This document shows, one piece after another, positions 274 through 5,678 of a DNA stretch of 64,000 bases (position 1 is the stretch's first letter; each line of letters begins with the position of its first letter). This DNA is from Rhodoferax sp. TS-BS-61-7. Lineage in GTDB: Bacteria; Pseudomonadota; Gammaproteobacteria; Burkholderiales; Burkholderiaceae_C. The position numbers and the translations under genes are program-made. The stretch is from contig NZ_PTQY01000001.1 of NCBI RefSeq assembly GCF_002943465.1, positions 1,054,001 to 1,118,000 of the forward strand. The letters are read 5' to 3'. The notes beneath the pieces were generated by a model. It made no database searches and had not been told where the DNA came from. It saw nothing but the letters and a program-made list of their open reading frames with translations.

Positions 274-343
274 AGGTTCTTTCTTTCGGGGGAAGGGGTG
301 AGTTTACGTTGGAAAAGTAGCGGCGCTACTTTGTGCTGAACCC

Positions 344-439
344 GCTGCGCGCCAGGGATACACCCCGCCGTTCGTGTCCCCCGGGCCGTGAGGGCCCTCC
401 TCCTTTACCTCACTTTGGGGCGCACCCCTGCCACGCAGC
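344..439 (-). repeat. Structured hairpin repeat, copy A1 (minus orientation)
   Basis: Arms 344-366 and 417-439 are complementary over 23 positions: 18 Watson-Crick pairs, one mismatch and four pairs that are G-U only if the minus strand is transcribed. The 50-nt apical part (367-416) is identical base for base to that of copy A2 at 4760-4809, although the stems of the two copies are unrelated. In the minus orientation the loop contains GGTAAAGGAGGAG, a small GGGCC/GGCCC hairpin, and GGGGGACACGAA. It lies between rsmG and the lysE-like gene, in the 337-bp gap 274-610, which otherwise holds only copy B1. Confidence 0.8.
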
Positions 440-492
440 TGCGAACGAGCGAGTGGGTCCCCCACCGCTGACACGCACACACCACCTCTGCA

Positions 493-584
493 GGCTGGGT
501 TGGGTAACGCGTTTTGCGTAGGTAAAGGAGGAGCCCGCGCAGCGGGCGGGGGACACGAAGCAAAACGCGTTACCCAACCCAGCC
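493..584 (+). repeat. Structured hairpin repeat, copy B1 (plus orientation)
   Basis: Arms 493-517 and 560-584 are a perfect 25-bp inverted repeat. The 42-nt loop (518-559) reads GTAGGTAAAGGAGGAG, then a GCCCGC/GCGGGC mini-hairpin, then GGGGGACACGAA. It is the inverted partner of copy A1, 53 bp away, head to head. Its loop matches copy B2 (4904-4945) except in the mini-hairpin, where the bases differ but pairing is kept. It ends 26 bp before the 3' end of the convergent rsmG gene, so the long stem could also act as a terminator of rsmG on the other strand. Confidence 0.8.
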
Positions 585-610
585 CTCACACAAAGCGGAA
601 CGCGAGGGGC

Positions 611-1294
611 TTAGGCAGCCGCCCTCTTCCTCATCCAAACAATGCACCGCTCCGCGTCCAACCCCGGCACATCCAGTTGTTCCACGTGAAACACCTCCAC
701 CGAGCCAGGCAGCGCAGCCATCTCCTCCGCCGGATGTTTGCCCTTCATCCCCATCCAGATCCCCTGCCCCGCCAGCGCCTTCTCCGACCAGGTCGTGAAA
801 TCCACCAAGGACGCAAAAGCCCGCGAACTCACCACGTCGTACGGCTCGGTCAAACTTTCCACCCGCGCATGGATGCCCCGCAGATTGGGCAACTTCAGTG
901 TCACTGCCACTTGCTGGATAAAGGCGGCTTTCTTGGCCACCGTGTCCACACAGTGCACCGTGATGTGCGGGCAGCAAATGGCAATCACTATGCCGGGCAG
1001 CCCGGCACCCGAACCCACATCGAGCAAACGGGGTTTGTCGCCCACTACGCCCTGCCCGGCCAGCACCGCCAGTTGCTTTTGCAATGGCGTGATCACCGCC
1101 AAGCTGTCCAGCAGGTGGTGCGTCAGCATCTCATCGGGGTCACGCACGGCGGTCAGGTTGTAGACCTTGGTCCATTTCTGGATCAGGGCCAGGTAGTCCA
1201 GCAGTGCGGTGATCTGCGCGTCATCCAACGACAGACCCAAGGCTGGCAGCGATTGCGCCAGTACTTCGCGGTGGTTCAGGTTAGGGGCAGGCAA
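611..1294 (-). CDS. rsmG: 16S rRNA (guanine527-N7)-methyltransferase RsmG (GidB)
   Basis: A 227-residue protein of the usual RsmG length (about 210-230). It methylates N7 of G527 in 16S rRNA using S-adenosylmethionine, in the cytoplasm. The SAM-binding glycine loop LLDVGSGAGLPGI lies near residue 90, and the SSRAFASL segment characteristic of the family is near residue 157. The N-terminal helical part (residues 15-60) includes LALIQKWTKVYNLTAVRD, a family hallmark. The start overlaps the 3' end of the preceding DUF4124 gene by 14 bp, so it probably belongs to the mnmG transcript. A parS-like site lies inside the coding sequence at 678-693. Confidence 0.97.
   Translation of the reverse strand: MPAPNLNHREVLAQSLPALGLSLDDAQITALLDYLALIQKWTKVYNLTAVRDPDEMLTHHLLDSLAVITPLQKQLAVLAGQGVVGDKPRLLDVGSGAGLPGIVIAICCPHITVHCVDTVAKKAAFIQQVAVTLKLPNLRGIHARVESLTEPYDVVSSRAFASLVDFTTWSEKALAGQGIWMGMKGKHPAEEMAALPGSVEVFHVEQLDVPGLDAERCIVWMRKRAAA
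678..693. other. parS centromere site (consensus match) inside rsmG
   Basis: The 16-mer TGTTCCACGTGAAACA fits the conserved bacterial parS consensus TGTTNCACGTGAAACA, the binding site of ParB. It is embedded in the 3' part of rsmG, where it encodes FHVEQ. Two related sites lie in mnmG. parS sites normally cluster close to the replication origin, often in or near parAB and gidAB. Confidence 0.88.
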
Positions 1295-1865
1295 CAGACA
1301 CCTCGTTGTTCAGTTTTGCGTAATCCATTTTTTCCTTGTCAGTCATTTTGGCCAACCGGGCGCGGCTCTTGTCCACCAACTGCCGCAACTGGCGGCAACT
1401 GGCCAAGTCCAAGGGCAGGTTGGCACCCCGAGCCTGCTCCGCTTTCCATACCTTCGCAAACTCCGTCATGCAACGCTGCTGAAACTCGTTCAACAGACGC
1501 TTGGAGTCTGCCAGTTCCGCAGTCGAATCATGGCGCAGGGTCTGGCCCAGCTGCTCACCAATGCTGCGGCACTCGGGTGACATGCCGGCCGATATGCGCC
1601 GGTTCAGGGCGCTCTGCTTCGCATCGTGCGCTGCGCTGGCAAGGCTGGAGTCCGGTGCTTGATCTGGCGACACCGACGCTTTGGGCGCCGACTTGGTGAT
1701 GCCCGGCACCGACGAACTGGTCTGATCCGCCGCACAAGCATGGTCGCTGAACACCACCTTGCCATCGGCACCTTTGCACTTGTAGACCTCGGCCTGCGCG
1801 GGAACGCCAAAGACCAACAGCCCTGCAGCCACCAGGCCGATGCGAAAAAACGGCATCGCCATCAA
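1281..1865 (-). CDS. DUF4124 domain protein, predicted exported
   Basis: A 194-residue protein starting MMAMPFF, with a hydrophobic signal segment (residues 5-24) and an AQA-like cleavage site near residue 25. It is followed directly by the DUF4124 signature EVYKCKGADGKVVFSDHAC (residues 26-45), a short domain found at the N terminus of many proteobacterial envelope proteins. The rest is polar and helical, with LARMTDKEK-like sequence and a few cysteines. It overlaps the upstream gene by 4 bp (ATGA) and rsmG by 14 bp, so the three are translationally coupled. The biochemical role of DUF4124 proteins is unknown. Confidence 0.85.
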   Translation of the reverse strand: MMAMPFFRIGLVAAGLLVFGVPAQAEVYKCKGADGKVVFSDHACAADQTSSSVPGITKSAPKASVSPDQAPDSSLASAAHDAKQSALNRRISAGMSPECRSIGEQLGQTLRHDSTAELADSKRLLNEFQQRCMTEFAKVWKAEQARGANLPLDLASCRQLRQLVDKSRARLAKMTDKEKMDYAKLNNEVSVACP

Positions 1866-2518
1866 TCCCAGCAGTTGGCCGTCTGGCCCTGCGAGTGCAC
1901 CCAGTAACGGCCGTAGCCACCAATGCCGGGCCCCAGTTTGCCTTGCAGCGCCCAGACATCGCCACGGGCTTCGTGGTCGTAATGCTGGTCGTCCATGTGG
2001 TTGCCACCGTCTGCAAAGGTGGCCATGCGCCAGCCTGGGCCCAACTCGCGCTCACACATCACATTGGCTTTCATTTCGGAATCCAGCGTGGCACCCATCA
2101 CCGCCTGGGTGGCGGCCAACTCACTGCGGCTCCAACCGCTGCCGCTCAGGCCACCGGGTCGGGGCAAGTCGCCCTTTTTGATGCACAACACTGGCAGCAC
2201 GATGCGGCAGCTGGTGTCACCCACATTGGGGTTGCAGGCGCCCTTGTAGGCGCGGTCCAGCGTGGATTCGCCTGCGTCGCAGACCATATTGGCCACGTCT
2301 TTGGGATCCTTGTCTTCCAGTGGCGCCAGGCCAAAGGTCAGGCCATAACCAATCGGTTTGTTGCCGGCAGGTTCGGGTGCGCTGGCCGCAGGGGTGAGAG
2401 GCGCACCCGATGGGGCCACCGCCACCGGTGGGGTTTTGGGAGCGGTGCATTTCTTCAGCATCAGAGGGATTACCAGAATCCCCACCAGAGTCAGCACCAG
2501 AACAATCGCACGCGGCAT
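1862..2518 (-). CDS. Uncharacterised membrane-anchored protein between mnmG and rsmG
   Basis: A 218-residue protein that I do not recognise. Residues 4-22 form one hydrophobic helix followed by KKC, then a proline/alanine-rich linker to about residue 55, as in proteins anchored in the inner membrane with a periplasmic domain. The C-terminal domain (55-218) has about seven cysteines (MVCDAG, GACNP, TSCRI, VLCIKKG, MCERELG, TANCWD), which suggests disulphides, and a GPGWRMATFADG segment reminiscent of extracellular lectin-like folds, though this is only an impression. It ends by 4-bp overlap into the DUF4124 gene and starts 38 bp after mnmG. Confidence 0.7.
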   Translation of the reverse strand: MPRAIVLVLTLVGILVIPLMLKKCTAPKTPPVAVAPSGAPLTPAASAPEPAGNKPIGYGLTFGLAPLEDKDPKDVANMVCDAGESTLDRAYKGACNPNVGDTSCRIVLPVLCIKKGDLPRPGGLSGSGWSRSELAATQAVMGATLDSEMKANVMCERELGPGWRMATFADGGNHMDDQHYDHEARGDVWALQGKLGPGIGGYGRYWVHSQGQTANCWD

Positions 2519-2556
2519 GCACAGCCCTCCCCGGCCCGTTGGAAAAAGGGGCTAGT

Positions 2557-4605
2557 TTACGCTGCCACTTTTTCGGCAAAGCCGCGGAAGTTGCCCTTCT
2601 TCAGGTGGATCAGCAGCAGTGAGATGGTGGCGGGCGTGATGCCCGACAGGCGCGAAGCCTGGCCCAAGGTTTCGGGCCGGTACTTGTTCAGGCGCTGGCG
2701 GGCTTCGATGCTGAGCGCCCCCACCTGCAGGTAATCCAGCTCGGCCGGCAGACGCAGGTTCTCGTAATGGGCGGCGCGCTCCACTTCGTCCTTCTGGCGG
2801 TCGATGTAGCCGGAGTACTTGGCAGCAATCTCCACCTGCTCCACCACCGCAGCCACAAAGGCGTCTTGTGCCGCCACTTCCACGTTGAGCGCCACGTCCG
2901 TGGTTTCACGTGAAACAGCCGGCGGCAAATCCCGGTTGGCGTACTTGCCGTGGTCCAGCGACATCAATGCGGCGTAGCTGATGTTGGGGCGGCGCAGCAG
3001 GTCGCCCAGGTTGTATTCGTGGTCAATGGCCTTGCCCAACACGCGCTCGGATTCCTCGGCGGCCAGGTTGCGCGGGTTCACCCAGATGCTGCGCAGGCGT
3101 TCTGTTTCACGTGAAACAGCGTCGCGCTTGCGGCTGAACGCATCCCAGCGTGCGTCGTCCACCAGGCCCAACTGGCGGCCGACTTCGGTCAGCCGGTCGT
3201 CGGCATTGTCTTCACGCAGCTGCAGGCGGAACTCGGCCCGGCTGGTGAACATGCGGTACGGCTCGGTCACGCCCTTGGTAATCAGGTCGTCCACCAGCAC
3301 GCCCAGGTAAGCCTGGTCACGGCCCGGCAACCAGCTGTCGCCCGCAAAGGTAATGGCGCCCGCAGCACTGGCTGCCGCATTGCCACAGCCCAGGCTACGC
3401 ACCTGCAGCGCGGCGTTGATGCCGGCAAACATGCCCTGGGCCGCCGCCTCTTCGTAGCCCGTGGTGCCGTTGATCTGGCCGGCAAAGAACAGGCCGCCAA
3501 TCTGGCGCGTCTCGAAACTGCTCTTCAGGCTGCGCGGGTCAAAGTAGTCGTACTCGATGGCGTAACCCGGGCGCAGGATGTGGGCATTCTCCAGCCCGGC
3601 CATGCTGCGCACCAGGTCGTACTGCACATCGAACGGCAGGCTGGTGCTGATGCCGTTGGGGTAGTACTCGTGCGTGGTCAGACCCTCGGGTTCCAGAAAG
3701 ATCTGGTGGCTGTCTTTGTCGGCAAAGCGGTTGATCTTGTCTTCCACGCTGGGGCAGTAGCGCGGGCCCACGCCCTCGATCTTGCCGGTGAACATGGGGC
3801 TGCGGTCAAAGCCGGAGCGGATGATGTCGTGGGTGCGCTCGTTGGTGTGGGTGATCCAGCACGGCACCTGCTGCGGGTGCATGGCCACATTGCCCATGAA
3901 GCTGGCCACCGGCATCACATCGCTCATGCCACCGGGCACGCCATCGCCGGGCTGGATGATGCACTTGCTGAAGTCGATGCTGCGGCCATCCAGGCGCGGC
4001 GGTGTGCCGGTCTTCAGGCGGCCTTGCGGCAGCTTGAGTTCTTTCAGGCGGGCCGACAAAGACACGGCGGGCGGGTCCCCTGCTCTACCGGCCGCATAGT
4101 TGTTCAAGCCCACGTGGATTTTTCCGTCCAGGAAGGTACCAGCCGTCAGCACCACAGTCTTGGCGCGGAACTGGATGCCCACTTGGGTGACTGCGCCGAC
4201 CACGCGGTCACCCTCGATCATCAGGTCGTCCACCGCTTGCTGGAACAGCCACAGGTTGGGTTGGTTTTCCAGCATGCGGCGGATGGCGGCTTTGTACAAA
4301 ACCCGGTCAGCCTGGGCGCGCGTGGCACGCACGGCGGGGCCCTTGCTGCTGTTAAGAATGCGGAACTGGATGCCCGACTCGTCGGTGGCCAAGGCCATCG
4401 CACCGCCCATGGCGTCCACCTCTTTGACCAGGTGGCCTTTGCCAATGCCGCCGATGCTGGGGTTGCAGCTCATCTGGCCCAGGGTTTCGATGTTGTGGGA
4501 GAGCAGCAGCGTCTTGCTGCCCATGCGGGCGGCAGCCAACGCAGCCTCCGTGCCGGCATGGCCGCCGCCAACGACGATGACATCGAAATCTTGTGGGTAC
4601 AACAT
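2557..4605 (-). CDS. mnmG: tRNA uridine-5-carboxymethylaminomethyl(34) synthesis enzyme MnmG (GidA)
   Basis: A 682-residue FAD protein. With MnmE it makes the 5-carboxymethylaminomethyl modification of the wobble uridine in several tRNAs. The N-terminal dinucleotide-binding motif [19 protein letters not shown] is at residues 10-29, followed by the MnmG signatures [16 protein letters not shown] (about 45-60) and the second FAD/NADH region. [18 protein letters not shown] (about residue 380) and the C-terminal helical MnmE/tRNA-binding part complete it. Two short VSRET segments (around residues 495 and 565) are encoded by parS-like palindromes, so the protein sequence accommodates centromere sites. 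It is first of a four-gene minus-strand block ending with rsmG; copy A2 of the structured repeat lies in its leader. Confidence 0.98.
2902..2917. other. parS-like site in mnmG (one mismatch)
   Basis: GGTTTCACGTGAAACA matches the parS consensus TGTTNCACGTGAAACA in 15 of 16 positions; only the first base differs. It lies in the coding sequence of mnmG, 201 bp from the perfect site at 3103, and encodes the VSRET of AVSRETTD. Confidence 0.75.
3103..3118. other. parS centromere site in mnmG (perfect palindrome)
   Basis: TGTTTCACGTGAAACA is a perfect 16-bp palindrome and a full match to the ParB-binding parS consensus; the flanking bases extend it to 18 bp (3102-3119). It encodes the VSRET of AVSRETER in MnmG. 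Confidence 0.92.
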
Positions 4606-4734
4606 GGTGTTCTATTCGAGCGCGCCAAAGACAGGGGTGTGCGCCAAGTGAGGGGGAAGGGCATGATTTTACCGGGTGCCTGATTTTTTGGCACGTTACG
4701 GGAATACCGGCCCTGCCGCATCGCCTTTACCTCT

Positions 4735-4834
4735 GGATCAAGCGGGGCGGGTACTCTGCGCCGTTCGTGTCCCCCGGGCCGTGAGGGCCCTCCTCCTTTA
4801 CCTCACTTTGCAGAACACCCACCCCACTTGATCC
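4735..4834 (-). repeat. Structured hairpin repeat, copy A2 (minus orientation)
   Basis: Arms 4735-4759 and 4810-4834 pair over 25 positions: 21 Watson-Crick pairs and four that are G-U only on the minus strand, with no mismatch. The 50-nt apical part 4760-4809 is identical to that of copy A1, while the stem is unrelated in sequence. It sits 130 bp upstream of the mnmG start, on the same strand, so it may be in the mnmG leader. The 426-bp gap 4606-5031 holds only this copy, its head-to-head partner B2, and presumably the two divergent promoters. Confidence 0.8.
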
Positions 4835-4876
4835 CTCACCATATTCGCGCTCGAACATTGGCATACGACCCGTCGA

Positions 4877-4972
4877 GCGGCAGGGGTGGGGTGTGCGTTT
4901 TGCGTAGGTAAAGGAGGAGGCCCCTCACGGGCCGGGGGACACGAAGCAAAACGCACACCCCACCCCTGTCGC
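4877..4972 (+). repeat. Structured hairpin repeat, copy B2 (plus orientation)
   Basis: Arms 4877-4903 and 4946-4972 pair over 27 positions, with one G-U pair (4880/4969) that is valid only on the plus strand. The 42-nt loop 4904-4945 reads GTAGGTAAAGGAGGAG, a GGCCC/GGGCC mini-hairpin around CTCAC, and GGGGGACACGAA. Its stem shares only the innermost GCGTTTTGC with copy B1. It ends 59 bp before the FMN reductase start on the same strand. Confidence 0.8.
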
Positions 4973-5031
4973 GGGCGAACGAACGGGCAAGCAAGAACAA
5001 AAGAAGCCCAACCTTGGCGACAATCAAGACC

Positions 5032-5620: not shown

Positions 5621-5678
5621 CAAATCAGGGTCTAGCCCGCATGGATACTGCGCAAACAGCTACTAATTTAATAGCAAA
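5621..5678 (+). repeat. Dispersed GCGCAAGCAGCT repeat, copy 1
   Basis: This copy has the family layout: a TCTAGC box, a variable CCGCATGGATA stretch, TGCGCAAACAGC, then a small GCTA/TAGC hairpin with an AT loop. It lies right after the FMN reductase stop and before the convergent aldehyde dehydrogenase. Confidence 0.75.

What the first reader, a model, noticed from the sequence alone, without database searches (positions are those of the whole stretch)
344..4972. A hairpin family with constant loops and unrelated but self-complementary stems
Four elements (344-439, 493-584, 4735-4834, 4877-4972) share the loop segments GGTAAAGGAGGAG and GGGGGACACGAA around a mini-hairpin, each closed by a 23-27 bp stem. 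Copies A1 and A2 have identical 50-nt loops, yet their stems share no alignment; in each the arms still pair. The mini-hairpin also covaries (GGGCC/GGCCC, GGCCC/GGGCC, GCCCGC/GCGGGC). All nine wobble-type positions in the outer stems are G-U on one strand only, always the strand on which the loop reads GGTAAAGGAGG. That is the signature of selection on a transcribed structure. The loop holds an exposed or sequestered Shine-Dalgarno-like AAAGGAGG. I know no named RNA family that fits.
Basis: partly seen in the sequence, partly recalled or inferred. Interest (0 to 1): 0.85.

Follow-up and report, generated by a model that had tools for sequence, protein, structure and literature searches.

The report
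Widespread self-complementary hairpin repeat in Burkholderiales
The four hairpins are copies of a dispersed DNA repeat of betaproteobacteria, probably one reported in outline in 2011, whose folded shape seems to be kept by natural selection even inside genes and in either direction, which suggests that an unknown cell factor recognises it.

Summary
The window holds 4 of 32 copies in this genome. In 30 of them, 26 of 27 outer-stem pairs show two-sided changes; over 245 elements mismatches are 499 G-U against 55 A-C. The 'loop' is structured: one pair in it is Watson-Crick in 245 of 245. Of these, 115 have an opposite-strand partner nearby (usually head to head, about 46 nt apart) and 32 lie inside genes such as mpl, mutL and cobB.

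'Transcribed RNA' is not supported: orientation is random against genes (77 sense, 74 antisense), and antisense copies keep the G-U excess. Loops lie inverted at shared sites. At one mpl site, 18 of 30 loci read carry it; stems diverge like third codon positions yet stay paired, while the core hardly changes. In four related genomes 92 of 96 copies read carry GGTC where this genome has GGTA, with diverse mini-hairpins. I infer a trans-acting recogniser, not found.

It is probably BRE of Hot et al. 2011, whose sequence I could not read. It resembles REP/BIME, but the REP transposase is missing from the two richest genomes of one family. No Rfam family reached its threshold.

The parts
344..439 (-). 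Hairpin element, subtype A (core flanked by AAAGTGA / GAACGG), left member of pair 1
440..492 (.). Spacer (53 nt) of head-to-head pair 1
493..584 (+). Hairpin element, subtype B (GCGTTTTGCGTA / GAAGCAAAACGC), right member of pair 1, 25 of 25 bp Watson-Crick
4735..4834 (-). Hairpin element, subtype A, left member of pair 2, upstream of mnmG
4835..4876 (.). Spacer (42 nt) of head-to-head pair 2
4877..4972 (+). Hairpin element, subtype B, right member of pair 2
397..409 (-). Conserved core strand GGTAAAGGAGGAG of element 1
521..533 (+). Conserved core strand of element 2
4790..4802 (-). Conserved core strand of element 3
4907..4919 (+). Conserved core strand of element 4
371..382 (-). Second core strand GGGGGACACGAA of element 1
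548..559 (+). Second core strand of element 2
4764..4775 (-). Second core strand of element 3
4934..4945 (+). Second core strand of element 4

Best explanation
The elements are copies of a dispersed, chromosomal hairpin repeat of Burkholderiales and relatives, most likely the sparsely described Beta-proteobacterial repeat element (BRE). Shown: each unit is about 100 nt, with an outer stem of largely free sequence (23-27 bp in the window), a fixed internal purine core (GGTAAAGGAGGAG / GGGGGACACG) with its own pairs, and a small covarying inner hairpin. Many units lie as head-to-head pairs with a spacer near 46 nt. What is conserved is the folded form of the core strand, whichever way it lies against genes, and in two genomes against replication. 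At shared sites the loop can lie either way round, which I attribute to strand switching between the arms. Inferred: a sequence-specific factor acting in trans reads the folded single strand (extruded or single-stranded DNA, or a short element-derived RNA). That would explain why the core stays fixed while arms drift with compensation, and why the core differs in almost all copies of one group of species. New copies arise by insertion of non-autonomous units; the enzyme is unknown and is not REP transposase in at least some genomes.
For: Covariation: 92.9% of cells paired (shuffles 62.4%), 26 of 27 outer pairs with two-sided change in 30 genomic copies. 245 elements: 5732 Watson-Crick, 499 G-U, 55 A-C, 254 other; column pair 33-69 is G-C 203, A-T 40, C-G 2. 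One orthologous site in mpl, reached through the Mpl protein: 18 of 30 loci read carry it, 18 of 29 helix-1 pairs have two-sided changes; among 15 sense copies the outer stem arms differ by 0.35 and 0.37, the core by 0.064 and 0.027, flanking third codon positions by 0.375 and 0.277. Orientation random against genes; no replication bias in two genomes. Core switch: column 36 is C in 92 of 96 copies read from G007, G001, G883 and G808 and A in 28 of 30 read from G000, with diverse mini-hairpins; at the mutL site the mini-hairpin is the same in G000 and G001 (and otherwise absent from the 24 G001 copies read) while column 36 differs. Pairs: 68 different head-to-head pairs, 2 tail-to-tail and 1 tandem among 305 element records; 48 of 68 spacers are 40-54 nt; 115 of 245 elements have an opposite-strand partner within 300 nt. 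Patchy: 180 of 398 genomes of the family, 69 of 115 genera, up to 91 pattern hits.
Against: No recognising protein or RNA was found. One shared site (L006/L112) does not follow the core switch and G009 is mixed, 15 A to 5 C. At mpl the unchanged mini-hairpin is also the commonest one in G001, so there conversion is not excluded. The 30 G000 copies were chosen by a pattern with A at column 36 and at most one mismatch, so a doubly changed copy would be missed; 2 of 32 copies were not read. The other copies were chosen by the covariance model, which itself rewards the core. Intact old copies could be survivors: 6 of 30 mpl loci hold inserts without a recognisable core, some perhaps decayed. Ranking of the mpl loci used a query that contained the insert, so element-bearing species are favoured among the 30 read; 27 of the 30 unread genomes show the match split at the site. 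The G-U:A-C ratio is somewhat higher in sense than in antisense copies between genes (149:8 and 123:13). Hot et al. report a discrete transcript over one BRE, which favours RNA if BRE is this element. Loci of the collection scan were selected by an exact core, so core conservation in that part is biased.
Confidence: 0.55

Rival explanations
1. A transcribed RNA element: the repeat acts in cis in mRNAs, or is processed into a small hairpin RNA.
For: G-U excess on one strand; strong RNA folding on that strand. Hot et al. 2011 saw transcripts of 70-80 and about 200 nt over one BRE, relevant if BRE is this element.
Against: Orientation is random against genes, between co-directional genes and inside genes, and antisense copies keep the G-U excess, so host mRNA cannot be the only selected molecule. 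The consensus of the 5' flanks is nearly empty; no promoter scan was run.
Confidence: 0.2
2. A purely selfish miniature mobile hairpin. Intact copies are survivors; arms are kept complementary by template switching in palindromes and the core is kept alike by gene conversion.
For: Copy number from 0 to at least 99 (the scoring cap) within one genus; empty sites of 36 nt in mpl; closely similar copies at different places in G214; pairs of two subtypes.
Against: Arm correction predicts no strand bias, but 499 G-U face 55 A-C. Gene conversion should carry the mini-hairpin along with column 36, and at mutL it did not. G005 had a single hit under strict filters and that copy is intact (L035). No transposase was recognised between widely spaced facing hairpins (open frames of 6 of the 14 cases listed were judged by eye).
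Confidence: 0.22
3. REP/BIME spread and read by a RAYT (Y1_Tnp) transposase.
For: Palindromes of two subtypes in inverted pairs, mostly intergenic, as in BIMEs (definition read in PMC8266576 passages).
Against: G214 (39 matches) and G364 (37) have no Y1_Tnp match; in that family 4 of 10 element genomes and 44 of 91 others have one, taking it that searches drew the same 101 genomes. G002, G004 and G017 have Y1_Tnp and no element match. No element in the 15 Y1_Tnp loci fetched.
Confidence: 0.05

Closest known systems
BRE, Beta-proteobacterial repeat element (Hot et al. 2011, PMC3110155; abstract, passages and sections 11-14 read)
   Same: About 90 bp, GC 69.0% in Bordetella (here median 100 nt, mean GC 69.3%), betaproteobacteria including Rhodoferax ferrireducens, Polaromonas, Delftia and Acidovorax, mostly intergenic with some inside coding sequences, not aligned with replication, 1 to 29 copies.
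   Different: No sequence was readable (figure only), so identity is untested. The sections read give no fold, covariation or head-to-head pairs for BRE (its locus was picked with RNAz), and report tandem arrays in Bordetella, which were rare here (1).
REP and BIME with RAYT/TnpAREP (PMC8266576, passages)
   Same: Palindromes in inverted pairs with a linker, two subtypes; single-strand recognition is known there and only inferred here.
   Different: Unit is about 100 nt with largely free stem sequence and fixed internal core; no RAYT needed; also in frame inside genes.
ERIC / RU-1 and Rickettsia palindromic elements (search listings, passages of PMC2267715, and recall)
   Same: Structured dispersed repeats, some inside coding sequences.
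   Different: Sequence and architecture differ as far as I recall; not compared by a tool.
Bor-1 stem-loop family of Bordetella (Cozzuto et al. 2008, PMC2267715, passages)
   Same: Structured intergenic repeat, model of 117 bp with 196 detected in B. bronchiseptica and 93 bp with 128 in B. pertussis.
   Different: No sequence read; relation untested.
Integron attC sites (recall)
   Same: Folded single strand with variable stem sequence and conserved unpaired features.
   Different: Integrase, cassettes and attC boxes were not searched for.

Membership tests
BRE (Hot et al. 2011) | Sequence match to the published BRE alignment | not testable with these tools
BRE (Hot et al. 2011) | About 75-91 bp, GC near 69%, betaproteobacterial, intergenic and intragenic | tested here: met
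   Median 100 nt, GC 69.3% over 329 elements, slightly longer than reported; distribution; context.
BRE (Hot et al. 2011) | Tandem arrays (VNTR) | tested here: not met
   68 head-to-head pairs and 1 tandem in 305 element records. The feature was reported for Bordetella, which was not examined.
REP/RAYT | RAYT (Y1_Tnp) in the same genome | tested here: not met
   No match in G214 and G364 with 39 and 37 element matches; present in others.
REP/RAYT | 20-50 nt palindrome preceded most often by GTAG | tested here: not met
   Unit about 100 nt; GTAG before the core in part of the copies only.
Rfam RNA families | Match at gathering score | tested here: not met
   0 matches in 64 kb; six below gathering in 300-5000 at E up to 10.
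MITE of a known insertion sequence | Larger element with the same ends and a transposase | tested here: inconclusive
   Of 14 facing cases with spacing 140-3000 nt (two listed twice through overlapping loci), 6 were looked at by open frames only.
Phage or plasmid element | Carried by phages or plasmids | tested here: inconclusive
   One query gave no blastn match at E 0.01 in either collection. 3 of 72 viral pattern hits have the stem. Three Variovorax replicons of 1.2-1.3 Mb filed as plasmids carry it.

The most novel reading that the evidence does not exclude
A chromosome-wide recognition system: an unidentified factor reads one strand of a folded hairpin at tens of sites per genome, between and inside genes and in either direction, and the recognised core co-evolves with it, as in the A-to-C difference shared by 92 of 96 copies read from four species.
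Probability: 0.35. Interest if true: 0.8.

Novelty: new variant of a known kind. Interest (0 to 1): 0.6.

Why it matters
Dispersed hairpin repeats are common in bacteria, but for most it is unknown whether they do anything. Here selection is visible at a single site, on one strand of the element and not tied to host transcription, and nearly all copies read in one group of species carry the same changed core base. That turns 'what reads these repeats' into a direct biochemical test with a matched pair of baits (GGTA and GGTC).

Tried and rejected
Rfam at gathering and at E 10: nothing relevant. RAYT as partner: rejected as a requirement. Autonomous parent element: none recognised in 6 cases looked at by eye. 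Phages and plasmids: no blastn match at E 0.01 with one query; with two other queries against plasmids at E 10, 22 records were listed, 4 were opened, the three Variovorax ones hold elements, H11 (Cupriavidus) none by my scan, the other 18 were not opened. Viral contigs: 3 of 72 pattern hits have a stem. Replication bias: G007 10 leading and 12 lagging singles, G001 10 and 9, counted by eye with a few near the skew switch assigned by judgement; G883 skew was too noisy and G808 skew was not sampled. Stems copied from the target: the empty mpl site shares only the outermost GGG with the 5' arm (by eye); intergenic empty sites did not align well enough. Link of columns 31 and 36: no clear rule. 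The tree tool's counts of changes printed nothing, so inversions were read from the tree by eye. Literature: nine searches gave only BRE and Bor-1 as candidates; most subscription journals are outside the library. First element scan misplaced the second core and was replaced.
Full report
Observation. The four elements are at the stated coordinates, with identical core segments and stems of 23-27 bp. They form two head-to-head pairs, 344-439 with 493-584, and 4735-4834 with 4877-4972, with spacers of 53 and 42 nt. Pair 1 lies just past the end of rsmG (611-1294, minus strand); the gene on its other side is cut by the window edge and was not annotated by a call. Pair 2 lies between the divergent genes mnmG and an FMN reductase.

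Genome. The core pattern hits 31 places in the genome with at most one mismatch. A covariance model built on 30 copies finds 32 copies plus 3 weak opposite-strand echoes of the same places. The 30 copies align with gaps only in the mini-hairpin. The structure pairs 92.9% of cells against 62.4% in shuffles and 38-42% when slid; 26 of 27 outer pairs have two-sided changes.

Strand. Over 30 copies outer-stem mismatches are 59 G-U, 8 A-C, 24 other; over 245 unique elements from 177 loci 499, 55 and 254. The inner 'loop' is paired too: column 33-69 is Watson-Crick in 245 of 245. Rare swaps inside the purine loop, GGAG/GGGGG to GGGG/GGAGG (4) and to GAAG/GGGTG (6), suggest further purine pairs, but half-changed forms also occur (3, 1 and 1), so this is weak.

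Orientation. With a simple gene finder of my own, 119 elements lie between co-directional genes (60 sense, 59 antisense), 32 inside genes (17 sense, 15 antisense), 47 between convergent and 19 between divergent genes, 28 at locus ends. G-U:A-C is 149:8 in sense and 123:13 in antisense copies between genes, 21:6 and 30:6 inside genes. So the selected strand belongs to the element and not to host mRNA alone. Singles showed no leading or lagging preference in two genomes of one and two contigs.

Inversion. At shared sites the loop lies in opposite directions in different species: the dnaE-type gene (L033, L035), L008/L053, L007/L049, L022/L161 and mpl. On a quick mpl tree the three antisense copies fall in two places, so at least two inversions, read by eye.

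One site followed without the core as bait. An Mpl search matched 60 of 60 genus genomes, three of them only weakly; the 30 best loci were read. 18 carry the element (15 sense, 3 antisense), 6 another insert, 6 are empty with 36 nt. The query held the insert, so element-bearing species are favoured among those 30; of the 30 unread, 27 show the match split at the site, as an empty or near-empty site would, and 3 are the weak matches. Among 15 sense copies the outer stem differs about as much as flanking third codon positions, yet stays paired, while the core hardly changes; third positions inside the core are invariant at 7 of 9. The window's own mnmG-upstream site carries elements in 9 of 30 species loci read, as a pair in 7.

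Core switch. Copies were read from six genomes: column 36 is A in 28 of 30 (G000), C in 24 of 24 (G007), 23 of 24 (G001), 23 of 25 (G883), 22 of 23 (G808), and 15 A to 5 C in G009. The G000 copies had been chosen by a pattern with A there (one mismatch allowed), the rest by the covariance model. Of four sites shared by G000 and G001, three differ as A and C and one does not. At mutL the mini-hairpin is unchanged and is otherwise absent from the G001 copies read, which speaks against conversion from another copy; at mpl the unchanged mini-hairpin is the commonest one in G001 and says less. Short-tract conversion is not excluded; a changed recogniser explains the pattern better. This step is inference.

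Pairs. Among 305 element records (overlapping loci make some count twice) there are 68 different head-to-head pairs, 48 of them with spacers of 40-54 nt, against 2 tail-to-tail and 1 tandem. Of 245 unique elements 115 have an opposite-strand partner within 300 nt, and the 32 in-gene copies are all single. In one other family (f21) pairs often join two subtypes, spacers often look like a small hairpin, and outer ends often read GCGCGCACC, all judged by eye.

Distribution. Genus and relatives: 23 of 41 genomes (22 of 25 in the genus, own included; 1 of 16 others), 0 to 99 matches, 99 being the number scored. Order: 13 of 399 genomes with a strict pattern, 10 of 165 genera, control columns 0. Own family with a looser pattern: 180 of 398 genomes, 69 of 115 genera; 7 rows show one control hit by my count.

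Known families. BRE (PMC3110155) fits by size, GC, taxa and place, but its sequence could not be read, so membership is probable and not shown. REP/BIME is the closest in architecture; its RAYT is not required. The recogniser, the mobilising enzyme and the form that is read (DNA or RNA) remain unknown.

Noticed in passing
window 678-693, 2903-2918, 3102-3117: Three near-identical 16-bp palindromes (TGTTTCACGTGAAACA type) inside rsmG and mnmG; they look like parS sites, a label I recall and did not test.
   Followed up: no
L400, and other inserts in L382, L393, L394, L395, L397: At the mpl insertion site six species carry a different insert; in L400 it holds a repeated GGTTCGCTGCCCCCCGAGGGGGC palindrome, so the same codon position may accept other repeats.
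   Followed up: partly
window about 5658-5676: A short A+T-rich palindrome (GCTACTAATTTAATAGC) after the FMN reductase gene; a similar one is in L070 between 2481 and 2790.
   Followed up: no
L406, L407, L408: Variovorax replicons of 1.2-1.3 Mb filed as plasmids carry the element, as head-to-head pairs in L406 and L407, which differ in a mini-hairpin at what looks like the same site.
   Followed up: partly
G592 C11:377102 and 377438, C53:228484 and 228819: Core pattern repeated on one strand about 336 nt apart at two places, a spacing unlike the usual pairs.
   Followed up: no
L136, L144: Elements in MAGs labelled Pseudoxanthomonas and Gammaproteobacteria; could be transfer, mislabelling or contamination.
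   Followed up: no
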